This document shows positions 55,442 through 61,390 of a DNA stretch of 64,000 nucleotides, piece after piece. Position numbers and translations under genes: made by a program. Every line of letters begins with the position of its first letter. The stretch's first letter is position 1. The DNA comes from an uncultured bacterium (GTDB taxonomy: Bacteria > Bacillota > Clostridia > Oscillospirales > Oscillospiraceae). The stretch lies in assembly GCA_945873205.1 (NCBI GenBank), contig CAMCCC010000005.1:1-64000 (forward strand). Reading direction: 5' to 3'. A model generated the notes under the pieces. The model was given only the letters and a program-made list of their open reading frames with translations. It was not told where the DNA came from and ran no database searches.

Positions 55442-57460
55442 TTACTCCTGCTCGGCCAGAGCCTTGGCTTCCTCAATGACCTTCTGCTGGACATTGCCGG
55501 GAGCTTCCTCATAGCGGATGAACTTGCAGGTGAAGGAACCACGGCCCTGGGTCATGGACCGCAGGTCGATGGTGTAGGAGCTCATCTCTGCCATGGGAAC
55601 CTCGGCCTCCACGGTCTGCATGCCGTCCTCGGCGTTCATGCCCAGCACGGTGCCGCGGCGCTTGGAGCTGATGTCGCTCATGATGTCGCCCAGGTTCTCA
55701 TCGGGGATGGTGACCTGCAGCAGGCCGATGGGCTCAAGAATGGTGGGCTTGGCCTTGGGGATGCCGTCCTGGTAGGCCAGGCGGGCAGCGGTCTGGAAGG
55801 CCATATCGTTGGAGTCCACCGGGTGGTAGGAGCCATCGTACAGGGTGGCCTTCAGGCCAACCAGGGGATAACCGGCCAGAACGCCCTTCACAACGGCGTT
55901 GCGCAGGCCCTTTTCCACAGAGGGGAAGAAGTTCTTGGGAACGGAGCCGCCGAAGACCTCCTCGGCGAAGATCATATCGTCCTGCTCGTCCTGGGGCTCA
56001 AAGCGAATCCAGACATCACCGAACTGGCCGGAACCGCCGGACTGCTTCTTGTGACGGCCATGGGCTTCCACACGGCCCTTGATCTTCTCGCGGTAAGCCA
56101 CGCGGGCGGGCTTCAGCTCGGTCTCCACGCCGAAGCGGCTCTTCAGCTTGGCGCAGAGCACGTCCAGCTGAATGTCGCCCAGGCCGGAGAGCACCTGCTG
56201 GCGGGTCTCGGCGTTGTTGAACAGATTGAAGGAGATGTCCTCCTCGTTGAGTCTTGCAAGGCCTGCGGCAACCTTGTCGTCCTGGCCCTTGGTCTTGGGG
56301 GAGATGGCCATGGAGTAGCAGGGTTCGGGCATCTGGATGGCGGGCAGCTCTACCTCGTTCTTGGGGTCGCACACGGTGTCGCCGGTTTTCCAGTCCATCT
56401 TGCCAACGGCCACGATGTCGCCGCAGCAGGCTTCCTTCACCTCGGTGGTCTTCTTGCCGCAAATGGTGTACAGACGGCCCAGCTTATCGGTGCTGGAGGC
56501 GCGGACGTTGCGCAGGGACATATCGGCAGTGATCTTGCCCTGCATGACCTTCACGAAGCTGTATTTACCGAACTGGTCGGAAATGGTCTTGAACACGAAG
56601 CCAACGGTGCTGCCGGCGGGCTGGATGCCCTCCATCTCGGCGGGGTTGGGAACGTAGTCCACAACGCCGTGCAGCAGGGCCTCGGTGCCGATACCGGCCA
56701 TGGCGGCGCTGGCGAACACGGGCACCACGCTGCGGTCCTTCAGACCGGCGCGGATGCCGGTGACCATCTCGGCCTCGGTCAGCTCCATTGTGTCGAAGTA
56801 CTTCTCCATCAGCTCCTCGGTGGCGCCGGCGGCGGTCTCCATCAGGGCCTCCCGCAGCTCTTCCACCTTGTCCGCGTCGGCGGCGGGGACAGCGACCTTG
56901 GTGGTCTTGCCGCCCTTGGTCTGGTAAGCGGTGTTATGCACAATATCAATGACGCCGGTGCCGTCGGAGGTGGGGATGGTGACGGCGCAGACGATGCTGC
57001 CATACTTGGCCTTCAGGGCGTCCAGCACCTTGAAGTAATCGCCGTGCTCCTCATCGCACTTGGAGATGCAGAAAGCAGCGGGGACGCTGGCGGCCTTCAG
57101 GTATTTCCATGCCCGCTCAGCGCCGACGGACAGTCCGTCCTTGGCGGAGCAGAGGATGATGCCGGTCTCGGCAGCACGGATGGCAGCCAGGGCCTCGCCC
57201 ACAAAGTCAAAGAAGCCGGGGCAGTCCAGCACATTGATCTTGCAGCCGCCGAAGTTGACAGGGGCCACAGCGGTGGAAATGGTGATCTGGCGCTTGATTT
57301 CCTCCGCGTCATAGTCGCAGACGGTGTTGCCGTCGCTGACCTTACCCATACGGTCGATGGCGCCGGTGCTGAACAGCATGCTCTCAGCAAGGCTGGTCTT
57401 GCCGCTGTTGCCATGGCCCAGCAGGCAGATGTTGCGGATGTTTTTGGTTTCGTAGCTCAT
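55442..57460 (-). CDS. Elongation factor G-like GTPase (EF-G paralogue)
   Basis: The 672-residue protein has all EF-G domains: GTPase domain with GHGNSGKTS (G1), DCPGFFDF (G3) and the G4 position SKCD, where the canonical first Asn is Ser; then domains II-V with REKIKGRVEAHGRHKKQSGGSGQFGDVWIRFEP and RRGTVLGMNAEDGMQTVEAEVPMAEM. It matches the shorter EF-G II type paralogues of Firmicutes rather than the main fusA, which would sit in the str operon with rpsL, rpsG and tuf. Paralogues act in ribosome recycling or in still undefined translation steps. No ribosomal genes are near. Confidence 0.88.
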   Translation of the reverse strand: MSYETKNIRNICLLGHGNSGKTSLAESMLFSTGAIDRMGKVSDGNTVCDYDAEEIKRQITISTAVAPVNFGGCKINVLDCPGFFDFVGEALAAIRAAETGIILCSAKDGLSVGAERAWKYLKAASVPAAFCISKCDEEHGDYFKVLDALKAKYGSIVCAVTIPTSDGTGVIDIVHNTAYQTKGGKTTKVAVPAADADKVEELREALMETAAGATEELMEKYFDTMELTEAEMVTGIRAGLKDRSVVPVFASAAMAGIGTEALLHGVVDYVPNPAEMEGIQPAGSTVGFVFKTISDQFGKYSFVKVMQGKITADMSLRNVRASSTDKLGRLYTICGKKTTEVKEACCGDIVAVGKMDWKTGDTVCDPKNEVELPAIQMPEPCYSMAISPKTKGQDDKVAAGLARLNEEDISFNLFNNAETRQQVLSGLGDIQLDVLCAKLKSRFGVETELKPARVAYREKIKGRVEAHGRHKKQSGGSGQFGDVWIRFEPQDEQDDMIFAEEVFGGSVPKNFFPSVEKGLRNAVVKGVLAGYPLVGLKATLYDGSYHPVDSNDMAFQTAARLAYQDGIPKAKPTILEPIGLLQVTIPDENLGDIMSDISSKRRGTVLGMNAEDGMQTVEAEVPMAEMSSYTIDLRSMTQGRGSFTCKFIRYEEAPGNVQQKVIEEAKALAEQE

Positions 57461-57660: not shown

Positions 57661-60426
57661 TCAGGGTTTAGCGCCAACAAAGAGACTGGAGAGCACCATG
57701 GGGATGGCCCAGGCCAGCTGCAGCAGGAGCAGGAAGCCCAGGGTGACGCTTCCGGCGGTCAGCAGCTTTACGAAAACCACCATGCTGCCCAGCACTGCCG
57801 CCAGTACCGCCGCTGCCAGATTGACCCGGACGGCCAGATACATGCTGCGGCCCACATCGGCCACCTCTGTCAGGGGCCCCAGCCCCTCGTTGCAGATCAC
57901 CGCGGCGATCTTGCTTTTCTCCGGGGACGGCTCCGACATGGTGAAGCGCTCCACATAGGGCGGGAAGTCATAGCCGTCGGTGGCCAGGTCAAAGGTGTTG
58001 TGCAGCATTTCCGGGTTCACGTTGAAATCCCGCACGGCGAACACCGGGTGACGCCCTGAGCGCACCAGCTCCACCAGTGCCCGGCGAACCTGGGGCAGGG
58101 GGGTGTAGTTCAGGCTGAAAATGCCGTAAAGGATGCCGTCAATGGCCAGCAGCACCGAGGTCTTATCCGTAAGCCGGTAGGGGATGCGCACATTCATCAG
58201 GCGCATCAGCTCCGTCCCGCCGCAGAGGACCACATGGCCCTCAATGATGCCTTTCAGGCCGCCGCCGGAGAGGAACTCAAAATTCTCCACCTGGCGGGGA
58301 GAGCAGCGGTTCTCCTCCATCAGCCTGGCAAAACAGCCGCTGATGCTGGAACCGGAGGCGGTCACCAGGGTGCCGGCGTAGGCAATCACCTTCTCCGTGG
58401 ATTCGTCGGAGAAGATACGCACCGTGCCCATTTCAATGCTGCTCTCGGGGAACAGGTCCCGGTCGGTGACGATCAGGTTCCGGCTGGCGCCGATGTCACA
58501 AAGGCCGGACCAGCCGGCAATGGCGGCGCCGCTTTTGAAGATGCGCACCGAGCCTACAAAGAAGGGCAGGGCAAAGGCCAGAAGCCCACAGAAGGGGACC
58601 GCCGGGACCAGAATGGCGGAAAAGATGAACACAAAATCCGCAAAGGTCTTTTTCACCGCGGCGATCACCAGGCTCAGTATCAGCGCCAGCACAATCAGCA
58701 CCGGCCCCAGCTTGATAAACAGGGTCTCGTCCGGGGCGGCTTCCTCCGTGCGGCGGACAAAGCCCTTGGCAGAGCGCAGGGATTTCAGCAGCGTCAATTC
58801 ATCCTTACGCAGCTTGGTCTCGCCGGTGACGGCGTAAAAGTGCTTGCCGATGGCCGGCACCCGCAGGGCCTTGCGGATGCCCCGGGTGCTGAGGGAGGAG
58901 GAGAGCATCACGCCGATCACCGACAGGCTGGACACGGCGCACAGCGGGGTGTGCAGCGCCGCCGAATCGGACAGGGCCACGATCAGCCCGTCCAGACTGG
59001 TGAGCAGGCAGGCCAGCACCGCCAGGGCGTCCACGCCCACTTTGCCTCTGGCGGCGTTCAGGATGCCGCCGGTGACCACGTCCAGGCACAGCAGCATGAT
59101 GGCAAACTGCAAGGCGCAGCAGGCCGCCGCCGTCACCGGCAGATGCTGCAGCATCCCCGTCAGGGGCAGGCCCAGGGACAGATAGCACAGCAGCACTTCC
59201 AGAAGCACCGCCAGCCGCAGCCGCAGCCGCTGGGACCGCATGAAGGAGCCGTAGTAGCGGCAGGCACCGACGGGAGTCAGCTCCGGCCCCAGGTCCTCCT
59301 CGCTGTCGCTCATGGTGCTGGTGGTCACAGTGCGGTTGGTGCCCCGCAGGCGGAGGAAAGCGGAAGCCACCAGGGAGGCCACATACTCCCGGAAGCTGGG
59401 CAGGTCGTCCTCCAGGTCCAGCTCCCTGTCCCTGGCGGAACGGCGGCCGAAGCCCGCTTCTTCCTCGTCATAATCGTCGTAACGGTCGTCCTCGGCATAG
59501 CTGCCGCCGGGCACGGCCTGATAGTCCCGGAAGCTGCCGGCATAGCTGGCGTATTCCGCCGCCTGGCTCTCCCGGGGTTCCTCCGGCTGGGTTTCATAGT
59601 CGGAGGCATAGCCCTCCTCCGTCTTGTCCTTCCGGTGTTTTTTGAAGATTCCTTTCCTGCGCCCGGTACCGGCGTCCTCGTCCTCCGGGACGTCGCTTTC
59701 CGCTTCCGGCGCCCAGTGGCGCAGGTCGTGCTCCGGCTGGACGGAGGGACTGTAGCCCTGATCGGCGCTCATATCGATGGCGCGGCTGCCGAAAACAAAG
59801 CCCTCCTGCTTCTTCTTCCCGCTGAGATTGAAGCGGCTGTCGATGTCCGCTTCCGGCTCCGGCTCTTGCCGCGGGGAGCGGTCCACCGGCGGGCGGTAAG
59901 GCCGCTCGTCCTCGCCGATGGGGGCGTAAAGATCCACTTCTTCTCTTTTGGGCGCGGCCTGGGCCGCCTCCTGGCGGAGCCGGGCGATGGTGTCCAGTGC
60001 ATCCTGCTCCATGGCGCCCAGATTGCCGGTGTGAAGCTCCGCCGGAGCCTGGCCGTAGATGCGCACATCCTCGTCACCGGCAAAGCTCTGGGGTGCCGGG
60101 ACCTCCGCCGGCTCGTCATAGTATTGGGAGAAGATCTTGTCAAATACCGCGTCAAAATCCGACTCGGGGCTGCTGTCCGGGCTGTAGTATGCCTCCTCCG
60201 GCTGCCTGCCGGCATCGTCCGGCTCGTAGACCTCGGAGTCGTAGTAGTCCTCGGCCCCGCCCTGGGAGGAGCTGTAGTATTCGCCCCGGCCATCCGGCTC
60301 CGGGCTATAGCGGGATTGCATCCGTTCCTCCGCCTGATACTCGGCCAGAATGTCCTCTACGGAAAGTTCTTCTTCAGATTCAGTTTTCAGTTCACGCGGC
60401 TTCTGCTTATGACTGAAAAGTTTCAT
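57661..60426 (-). CDS. P-type ATPase-like membrane protein with lost catalytic motifs and a long acidic N-terminal tail
   Basis: The 921-residue protein starts with about 390 disordered residues rich in Asp, Glu, Tyr, Ser and Pro. Membrane helices follow (about 402-425, 431-452, 464-480, 493-511, 571-592, 597-625 and a last pair 866-885, 893-916), in the order of a P1B-type ATPase. FFVGSVRIFKSGAAIAGWSGLCDIGASRNLIVTDRDLFPE (617-661 region) occupies the place of the CPC helix and the DKTGT phosphorylation site, which here reads D655-R-D-L-F. VENFEFLSGGGLKGIIEGHVVLCGG matches the N-domain, FAVRDFN replaces the TGDN loop, and ICNEGLGPLTEVADVGRSM replaces the GDGxNDxxAL hinge while keeping ADVG. 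The A domain is cut to a short VTGET stretch. Transport activity is therefore unlikely; a scaffold, sensor or regulator role is inference. AGGAAAT precedes the ATG. Confidence 0.7.
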   Translation of the reverse strand: MKLFSHKQKPRELKTESEEELSVEDILAEYQAEERMQSRYSPEPDGRGEYYSSSQGGAEDYYDSEVYEPDDAGRQPEEAYYSPDSSPESDFDAVFDKIFSQYYDEPAEVPAPQSFAGDEDVRIYGQAPAELHTGNLGAMEQDALDTIARLRQEAAQAAPKREEVDLYAPIGEDERPYRPPVDRSPRQEPEPEADIDSRFNLSGKKKQEGFVFGSRAIDMSADQGYSPSVQPEHDLRHWAPEAESDVPEDEDAGTGRRKGIFKKHRKDKTEEGYASDYETQPEEPRESQAAEYASYAGSFRDYQAVPGGSYAEDDRYDDYDEEEAGFGRRSARDRELDLEDDLPSFREYVASLVASAFLRLRGTNRTVTTSTMSDSEEDLGPELTPVGACRYYGSFMRSQRLRLRLAVLLEVLLCYLSLGLPLTGMLQHLPVTAAACCALQFAIMLLCLDVVTGGILNAARGKVGVDALAVLACLLTSLDGLIVALSDSAALHTPLCAVSSLSVIGVMLSSSLSTRGIRKALRVPAIGKHFYAVTGETKLRKDELTLLKSLRSAKGFVRRTEEAAPDETLFIKLGPVLIVLALILSLVIAAVKKTFADFVFIFSAILVPAVPFCGLLAFALPFFVGSVRIFKSGAAIAGWSGLCDIGASRNLIVTDRDLFPESSIEMGTVRIFSDESTEKVIAYAGTLVTASGSSISGCFARLMEENRCSPRQVENFEFLSGGGLKGIIEGHVVLCGGTELMRLMNVRIPYRLTDKTSVLLAIDGILYGIFSLNYTPLPQVRRALVELVRSGRHPVFAVRDFNVNPEMLHNTFDLATDGYDFPPYVERFTMSEPSPEKSKIAAVICNEGLGPLTEVADVGRSMYLAVRVNLAAAVLAAVLGSMVVFVKLLTAGSVTLGFLLLLQLAWAIPMVLSSLFVGAKP

Positions 60427-60460: not shown

Positions 60461-61222
60461 TCAGCAGCCGCTGCGCTGCCGCAGGACCTCATACATGGTG
60501 ACCGCCGCTGCCGCGGAGGCGTTGAGGGAGCTGACCTTGCCCTTCATGGGCAGGCTCACCACAAAGTCGCAGTTCTCCTTTACCAGCCGGCCCATGCCGT
60601 CTCCTTCGGAACCGATCACCAGGGCCATGGCCCCGGTAAAGTCCGTGTGCCACAGGTCGCTCTGGCCGTCGGCCGCCGTGCCGTAGACCCAAAGCCCCTG
60701 CTCCTTCAGCTCCTTGATAGCGGCGGAGATGTTGGGCACCCGGGCGATCAGCGCGTGCTCCGCCGCCCCGGCGGAAGCCTTGTCCACAATGGCGGTGAGC
60801 CCGGCGCTGCGGCGCTTGGGGATGATGATGCCGTGAGCACCGGCGCACTCGGCAGAGCGGATGATGGCCCCTAGGTTGTGGGGGTCGCTGATCTCGTCGC
60901 AGACGATGACGAAGGGCGGCTCCTGCCGCTGCTCCGCCAGGGCCAGAATATCGCTGATCTGGCAGTATTCCCGCACACCGGCCAGGGCGATGACCCCCTG
61001 GTGAGCGTGGGTCTGACTCATGAAGTCCAGCTTGCGCCGGTCGGCCTCCACCACCACAACGCCCTTCTCCCGGGCCTTGGAGGCGATGTGCCCCAGGGTC
61101 TTGTCCACATCGCCCTTGGCGATGAAGATTTTGTCAATGGCCCGCCCGGCCCGCAGGGCCTCAATGACCGCGTTGCGGCCTTCGATGATATCGTTTTTGA
61201 TCTCGTTTTCTCTTTCCACCAT
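60461..61222 (-). CDS. rlmB: 23S rRNA (guanosine-2'-O-)-methyltransferase RlmB-type
   Basis: The 253-residue TrmH-family enzyme has the RNA-binding domain opening IIEGRNAVIEALRAGRAIDKIFIAKG and the knot motifs VCDEISDPHNLGAIIRSAECAGAHGIII, LVIGSEGDGMGRL and SLPMKGKVSSLNASAAAAVTMYE. RlmB methylates G2251 in the peptidyl-transferase centre region of 23S rRNA. Start 61222 fits the family; ATG at 61240 is a possible alternative. The gene ends 35 bases before the start of the pseudo-P-type ATPase gene and may be co-transcribed with it. Confidence 0.92.
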   Translation of the reverse strand: MVERENEIKNDIIEGRNAVIEALRAGRAIDKIFIAKGDVDKTLGHIASKAREKGVVVVEADRRKLDFMSQTHAHQGVIALAGVREYCQISDILALAEQRQEPPFVIVCDEISDPHNLGAIIRSAECAGAHGIIIPKRRSAGLTAIVDKASAGAAEHALIARVPNISAAIKELKEQGLWVYGTAADGQSDLWHTDFTGAMALVIGSEGDGMGRLVKENCDFVVSLPMKGKVSSLNASAAAAVTMYEVLRQRSGC

Positions 61223-61390
61223 GTATATCGTAAGCTCCATTTCGCTGTCAGCATAATATATCAGCCTACATAGTAACACAGACCGGCGGATATGGAAAGC
61301 CCCAGTTTTTTGAATTTACAAAATTTTATAGACTTTGGCAGAAAGACAGGGTATATTATAGTGTAAAGATTTACCAGAATGGAGAATCCT

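What the first reader, a model, noticed from the sequence alone, without database searches (positions are those of the whole stretch)
57661..60426. A P-type ATPase that has lost its pump chemistry and gained a 390-residue acidic tail
The order of membrane helices, P-domain, N-domain (VENFEFLSGGGLKG) and hinge (ADVGRSM) follows P1B-type ATPases closely, yet DKTGT is DRDLF, TGDN is VRDFN, GDGxND is CNEGLGP, the CPC metal site is absent and the A domain is a stub. The fold seems kept while catalysis is gone, and the tail is full of Asp/Glu/Tyr. I know of no described system built on such a pseudoenzyme. It sits after rlmB in an otherwise plain core region, so it may be a conserved regulator of membrane physiology in this lineage.
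Basis: partly seen in the sequence, partly recalled or inferred. Interest (0 to 1): 0.75.

Follow-up and report, generated by a model that had tools for sequence, protein, structure and literature searches.

The report
Order-wide dead metal-pump membrane protein
Nearly all sampled members of one order of bacteria keep, next to an rRNA-methylase gene, a membrane protein that is predicted to fold like a copper pump but has lost the parts needed to pump, and that often carries an end-peptide also found on other cell-envelope proteins.

Summary

It is not a decaying pump. 290 of 297 order genomes score better than any of 141 sampled genomes outside the order, and rlmB lies directly upstream in 56 of 59 loci. 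Replacement motifs (Dx[DE]xFP, DxN[IV]T, a nearly invariant Tyr) are conserved.

I add a new element. The N-terminus carries a short predicted helix, LSVEDILAEY. A close variant ends the tail of LspA in the same genome and opens some other envelope membrane proteins of the lineage; about half the distant orthologues lack it. My best reading is a pseudo-P1B membrane scaffold docked by a shared terminal peptide. The pseudoenzyme family is well supported; docking is inferred and the partner unknown.

The parts
57661..60426 (-). pseudo-P1B protein gene, 921 aa
   Evidence: ORF; family score in 290 of 297 order genomes; NG86 dN/dS of the core 0.17-0.44 against four relatives, dS 0.65-0.93 so rough
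60337..60366 (-). N-terminal docking-like peptide, residues 21-30 LSVEDILAEY
   Evidence: strict form in 24 of 56 orthologues against a mean of 0.018 in 500 shuffles; helix 23-37 in the full-length model at pLDDT about 55-67
59275..60426 (-). acidic, mostly disordered N-terminal arm, residues 1-384
   Evidence: pLDDT under 50 over most of it; helices at 23-37, 90-103, 136-156 and 345-363
57664..59241 (-). membrane and P/N core, residues 396-921; eight membrane helices inferred from the model and P1B topology
58747..58848 (-). A-domain stub, residues 527-560; TGES loop absent
   Evidence: strands 531-540 and 543-550; alignment with own-genome pumps
58585..58602 (-). position of the M4 CPx metal site, residues 609-614, no CPx
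   Evidence: CPx in 0 of 59 orthologues; alignment
58447..58464 (-). P-domain motif I position, residues 655-660 DRDLFP in place of DKTGT
   Evidence: D655 43, D or E657 55, F659 52, P660 48 of 59
58015..58035 (-). P-domain motif II position, residues 798-804 VRDFNVN in place of TGDN
   Evidence: D800 57, N802 51, T or S at 798 in 41 of 59
57889..57915 (-). approximate site of the deleted GDGxND hairpin, residues 838-846
   Evidence: gap in the family against own-genome pumps; motif in 0 of 59
60461..61279 (-). rlmB, upstream neighbour
   Evidence: same strand upstream in 57 of 59 loci, gap -205 to +135 bp in 56 (overlaps may partly come from taking the first possible start)

Best explanation
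The gene encodes a P1B-ATPase-fold membrane protein that has lost its catalytic motifs (a pseudo-P1B). It was fixed early in its GTDB order and kept as the neighbour of rlmB. It no longer phosphorylates itself or moves metal. The membrane body with its P and N domains serves as a fixed platform. Its disordered acidic N-terminal arm ends, in this genus and in roughly half of the distant orthologues, in a small amphipathic helix, about [FYL]x[LIV][DE][DE][IL]Lx E[FY]. This helix is a docking peptide read by an unidentified cytosolic hub. The same hub gathers other envelope proteins that carry the peptide at a free cytoplasmic end: LspA at its C-terminus, and a phosphodiester glycosidase, some VanW-type proteins and an ABC-2 permease at their N-termini. 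Shown here: the motif loss, the conservation, the gene pair and the recurrence of the peptide; the fold is predicted. Inferred: that the protein is inactive, that the peptide docks, that a common hub exists, and that the role is envelope assembly.
For: Fold. Motif loss: DKTG, CPx and GDGxND each 0 of 59. Replacement positions fixed: G736 59, G723 58, Y774 57, D800 57, W906 55, F659 52 of 59. Conservation: 290 of 297 order genomes with best E below 1e-40, none of 141 class genomes outside the order better than 7e-37. Gene pair: 56 of 59. Peptide: strict form in 24 of 56 orthologues against a shuffle mean of 0.018; in loci fetched after the pattern had been seen, 17 of 39. Own LspA ends FDLDDILNEFK. 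Own phosphodiester glycosidase has MDREYDLEELLREF. An ABC-2 permease begins LSDKFSIDDILAE. In 40 genomes the DNA pattern gave 70 matches against 5 for the reversed control, and in the own genome only this gene and LspA. Precedent: GpsB reads terminal peptides of cell-wall enzymes (PMC6335420, passages read).
Against: No partner was found and no interaction tested. 32 of 56 orthologues lack the strict peptide and 24 of 56 lack even the loose form, so it cannot be the only conserved function. Carriers other than LspA are patchy: 3 of 20 resolved VanW frames, not the own-genome one; many NAGPA frames lack it. LspA carries it only in family f1 (0 of 19 other-family loci). About 22 of the 70 pattern matches are internal, unrelated or unread. 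rlmB points to ribosomes rather than to the envelope. D655 and D800 survive in this copy, so phosphate or Mg binding is not excluded.
Confidence: 0.45

Rival explanations
1. Regulatory partner of a real P1B pump: the dead protein pairs or competes with a genuine copper or zinc pump of the same cell and tunes it.
For: The genome holds three P1B matches over the family cut-off; the predicted fold is the same.
Against: Its constant neighbour is rlmB, and no second P-type-like frame clustered with it in the 19 loci examined (only frames similar by BLAST would have shown). No CPx.
Confidence: 0.15
2. Membrane tether of ribosome or rRNA maturation: the protein works with RlmB, its neighbour, and brings the methylase or young ribosomes to the membrane.
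For: rlmB directly upstream in 56 of 59 loci; an EF-G-like gene also nearby in 5 of 19 clustered loci.
Against: The arm is acidic, unlike an RNA-binding tail; rlmB occurs in many bacteria outside this order (recalled); the end-peptide is shared with envelope proteins.
Confidence: 0.13
3. Still an enzyme: DxDxF is a HAD-phosphatase-like motif I, and the P domain binds or hydrolyses a phosphate ligand without the P-type cycle.
For: D or E at 657 in 55 of 59, T or S at 798 in 41 of 59, D800 in 57 of 59.
Against: The GDGxND hairpin is deleted; residue 655 is not Asp in 16 of 59; HP is absent in 57 of 59.
Confidence: 0.12
4. Passive transporter or channel: the helix bundle passes an ion or lipid, gated by the soluble domains without ATP.
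For: The membrane part is kept and confidently predicted; conserved Pro and Trp in membrane helices.
Against: No CPx and few polar positions conserved in the membrane part.
Confidence: 0.1
5. A decaying or pseudogenised pump.
For: Two relatives show an in-frame TGA or split frame (G016, G057; assembly error not excluded).
Against: The same motifs are missing in 59 of 59 orthologues, the replacements are conserved, and the core is under purifying selection.
Confidence: 0.01

Closest known systems
P1B-type (heavy-metal) ATPases, CopA/ZntA (TIGR01525; LpCopA 3rfu, 4bbj)
   Same: predicted fold and topology with the P/N insert between M4 and M5; weak sequence homology
   Different: no DKTGT, CPx or GDGxND; TGES and HP nearly always absent; A domain reduced to a hairpin; acidic disordered arm in place of metal-binding domains; conserved motifs of its own
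Degenerate P4-ATPase-like domain of apicomplexan guanylate cyclases (PfGC-beta; PMC6592433, passages read)
   Same: a P-type ATPase-like domain in which the paper could not identify most signature residues; a regulatory role of such domains on the cyclase is discussed there
   Different: eukaryotic, P4 class, fused to a cyclase; here a stand-alone bacterial P1B-class protein
GpsB adaptor with SRxxR(R/K) peptides of peptidoglycan synthases (PMC6335420, passages read)
   Same: the way of working proposed here: a short helical peptide in the cytoplasmic part of envelope membrane proteins, bound by a shared cytosolic adaptor
   Different: this peptide is acidic-hydrophobic rather than basic and far from the membrane; the hub is unknown; it also sits at the C-terminus of LspA

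Membership tests
P1B-type ATPase (as an active pump) | P-type fold with P1B topology | tested here: met
P1B-type ATPase (as an active pump) | DKTGT phosphorylation motif | tested here: not met
   DKTG in 0 of 59 orthologues; DRDLF in the window
P1B-type ATPase (as an active pump) | A domain with TGES | tested here: not met
   two-strand stub; TGE[SA] anywhere in the core in 2 of 59, not examined further
P1B-type ATPase (as an active pump) | CPx metal site in M4 | tested here: not met
   0 of 59
P1B-type ATPase (as an active pump) | GDGxND motif | tested here: not met
   0 of 59; segment deleted
P1B-type ATPase (as an active pump) | HP motif of the nucleotide-binding domain | tested here: not met
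   2 of 59, not in the window; the glycines G723 and G736 are kept
P1B-type ATPase (as an active pump) | metal-stimulated ATP hydrolysis and transport | not testable with these tools
   needs purified protein
HAD phosphatase | DxDx(T/V) motif I (recalled) | tested here: inconclusive
   DRDLF in the window; D655 43 of 59, D or E657 55 of 59
HAD phosphatase | motif IV acidic residues (recalled) | tested here: not met
   the hairpin that carries them in P-type ATPases is deleted
GpsB client | SRxxR(R/K) peptide close to the membrane | tested here: not met
   the conserved terminal peptide is LSVEDILAEY-like at residues 21-30, with the first membrane helix near residue 397; other SRxxR sites were not searched for

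The most novel reading that the evidence does not exclude
The order has an undescribed terminal docking-peptide code, about [FY]x[LIV][DE][DE][IL]LxE[FY] at free cytoplasmic ends of disordered tails, that recruits envelope-assembly membrane proteins to one cytosolic hub. A pseudo-P1B ATPase, an ancient metal pump turned into a non-catalytic membrane platform, is its most widely conserved client or its anchor.
Probability: 0.35. Interest if true: 0.85.

Novelty: new variant of a known kind. Interest (0 to 1): 0.72.

Why it matters
In my searches of an open-access library I met no described bacterial family in which a P-type ATPase fold is kept across an order with its chemistry gone. It is a near-universal gene of its order, and none of 30 members matches Pfam. 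If it is a scaffold, the shared end-peptide makes its function testable: one peptide pull-down could reveal a hub of envelope assembly in bacteria that are hard to grow.

Tried and rejected
Decaying pump: rejected (0 of 59 with DKTG; order-wide conservation). 'GDGxND mutated to CNEGLGP': rejected by alignment.

Peptide as chance: rejected for the pseudo-P1B and LspA, but many pattern matches elsewhere are unrelated; 3 matches in the own genome; the two besides this gene are internal to a SecA-like and a CBS-domain-like protein (names recalled from sequence); 18 matches in 6 of 8 genomes, reversed control 2; five are pseudo-P1B N-termini, one an ABC-2 permease N-terminus, the rest internal or unrelated; 30 matches in 25 of 98 genomes, control 1; one search resolved 28 of the 30: 16 pseudo-P1B N-termini (some by position only), 1 LspA C-terminus, 1 ABC-2 N-terminus, 10 internal or unrelated; 70 matches, control 5. 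By coordinates or reading I place 17 at pseudo-P1B N-termini, 16 at LspA ends, 3 at contig-cut C-terminal tails that look like LspA, 8 at phosphodiester-glycosidase-like N-termini, 3 at VanW or PG-binding-like N-termini, and 1 at an unnamed membrane protein; 22 are internal, unrelated or unread.

VanW as a general carrier: not supported (3 of 20 resolved frames out of 26 loci, own genome none). LspA outside family f1: 0 of 19 distinct loci. Within f1 (13 loci of the window's genus, one of another), 11 of 14 distinct loci end in the peptide, two are cut by the end of the stretch and one stops without it; three more carriers.

Seven of 297 order genomes gave only pump-like scores and still gave no clear full-length match with alignment A4.

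Literature: searches listed nothing on such a protein or peptide; I saw listings only, apart from passages of PMC6335420 and PMC6592433. No bioRxiv papers are held. Full-length AF2 returns no coordinates, so I could not see whether the peptide folds back on the core.

Mended: families 24 to 23; wording, of which rows below about 1e-22 were not listed; the neighbour claim; the place of L034.

Full report
What is there. The ORF at 57661-60426 (-) is intact and encodes 921 residues. Residues 1 to about 385 are acidic and mostly disordered; residues 396-921 form a membrane core. Pfam gives nothing for it or for any of 30 family members. NCBIfam gives heavy-metal P-type ATPase at 1.8e-7, far under its cut-off; of 30 members, 24 match the CopA model and 20 match TIGR01525 at E 0.01 or better. 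Among PDB sequences LpCopA is best at 1.4e-4.

Catalytic residues. I aligned 45 family members with P1B proteins of the same genome. Of these, L031 and L032 are canonical, L033 and L034 atypical, and two spurious antisense frames in the input were ignored. One search shows 27 members with the four P1B proteins. In 59 orthologue frames (the window, 18 loci, 40 loci; identified; 23 families of the order) DKTG, CPx and GDGxND occur in none, TGE[SA] in 2, TGD in 3 and HP in 2. L046, L048 and L140 are short or split. What replaces the motifs is itself conserved (of 59): Asp655 43, Asp or Glu657 55, Phe659 52, Pro660 48, Gly723 58, Gly736 59, Tyr774 57, Thr or Ser798 41, Asp800 57, Asn802 51, Trp906 55. 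GDGxND is deleted with its hairpin, and CNEGLGP pairs with what follows it. From general knowledge of P-type ATPases, losing KTGT, TGES and the GDGxND aspartates should abolish phosphorylation, dephosphorylation and proper Mg binding. Inactivity was not measured.

Selection. Against four relatives the core has dN/dS 0.17-0.44 and the arm 0.35-0.82 (NG86; dS is high, so the values are rough).

Distribution. The first search hit 58 of 60 relatives, but its weak hits include true pumps. With model A2, 297 of 297 order genomes hit. In 290 the best E is below 1e-40; in seven (G062, G092, G115, G127, G150, G248, G334) it is pump-like, also on a second look. This is my reading of the table; only about 150 rows with coverage were listed, and those span nearly the whole model. 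Of 147 class genomes, six are from the order and 141 are not. 142 of the 147 hit. The five order genomes other than the window's own, and the window's own, match at full length. Outside the order the best E is 7e-37, and the listed rows cover only about model positions 150-480, as true pumps would; rows weaker than about 1e-22 were not listed. So as far as sampled the family is confined to one GTDB order. Record titles of close relatives read Candidatus Limivicinus, uncultured Oscillospiraceae, Ruminococcaceae or Clostridiales, mostly MAGs; NCBI places Limivicinus in Clostridia, Eubacteriales. That the GTDB order is Oscillospirales is my inference.

Gene pair. rlmB was found upstream on the same strand in 57 of 59 loci, with a gap of -205 to +135 bp in 56. 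In L046 the orthologue frame is split, giving a larger gap; L038 showed no rlmB in the stretch; L140 is at a contig end. Large overlaps may come from taking the first possible start codon. An EF-G-like gene is also nearby in 5 of 19 loci clustered.

The terminal peptide. N-termini of distant orthologues share S[VIL][DE][DE]IL[AR]E. The strict form [VILF][DE][DE]IL.E occurs in the first 120 residues of 24 of 56 orthologues with enough N-terminus, against a mean of 0.018 and a maximum of 1 in 500 within-sequence shuffles; a looser form in 32 of 56 against 0.3. The pattern was framed after seeing part of these; in loci fetched later it holds in 17 of 39, in the earlier ones in 7 of 17. In A4, which I chose to be rich in the motif, Ile26 and Glu29 are invariant.

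Other carriers. In the own genome the DNA pattern for h[DE][DE]I(L/I/M/F)xE[FY] matches twice: here and at the end of LspA. The own LspA has a long Pro/Ala-rich tail ending FDLDDILNEFK. In family f1, 11 of 14 distinct LspA loci end so, 2 are cut and 1 lacks it; of 19 loci from other families none do. Phosphodiester-glycosidase-like proteins with a disordered N-terminal arm begin with it (two of three tested match Pfam NAGPA). The own copy, matched by NAGPA, has the variant YDLEELLREF if it starts at the second Met, and NAGPA frames without an arm lack it. Three of 20 resolved VanW frames have it, not the own one. One ABC-2 permease has it at its N-terminus. Over 40 genomes the pattern gave 70 matches against 5 for the reversed control; I place 48 at protein ends of these groups and 22 as internal, unrelated or unread. 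That LspA's C-terminus and the glycosidase arm face the cytoplasm is recalled or inferred.

Mechanism. Shown: motif loss, order-wide conservation, gene pair, shared peptide; the fold is predicted. Inferred: no ATPase or transport activity; the peptide is a helical docking element; a common cytosolic hub reads it, as GpsB reads peptides of peptidoglycan synthases in Bacillus, Listeria and Streptococcus (PMC6335420, passages); the pseudo-P1B is a scaffold or anchor. The rlmB pairing is not explained by this model and supports a rival, a membrane tether of rRNA maturation.

Known relatives. The nearest degenerate P-type ATPase domain I met is in apicomplexan guanylate cyclases (PMC6592433, passages). 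Searches for a bacterial pseudo-P-type ATPase or for this peptide listed nothing relevant (open-access library only).

Noticed in passing
L034:1057-2748 (+), own genome G000:C1 about 147296-148987: A second, different P1B-like protein with lost motifs (DKGGIF, LLTEDS, no TGES, no CPx, no GDGxND), 563 aa by my frame, between an aldolase-like and a recombinase-like gene (neighbour names recalled from sequence).
   Followed up: partly
L033:1468-3477 (-), own genome G000:C1: A P1B protein over the family cut-off with intact DKTGT and GDGIND but without TGES or CPC.
   Followed up: no
L256:828-1850 (-), own genome G000:C36: LspA with a disordered Pro/Ala-rich C-terminal extension ending FDLDDILNEFK; a like end in 11 of 14 distinct f1 loci.
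   Followed up: yes
L341, own genome G000:C9:7800-10300: A phosphodiester glycosidase (NAGPA) with an N-terminal arm that has MDREYDLEELLREF, a variant of the shared peptide.
   Followed up: partly
window 55442-57460 (-): An EF-G-like gene lies downstream of the pseudo-P1B gene; similar genes are nearby in 5 of 19 loci, this one included.
   Followed up: no
L305:1025-1543 (-): A 173-aa membrane-like protein without a Pfam match that begins MNKDNEFSLEDILAEY, a further carrier of the peptide.
   Followed up: no
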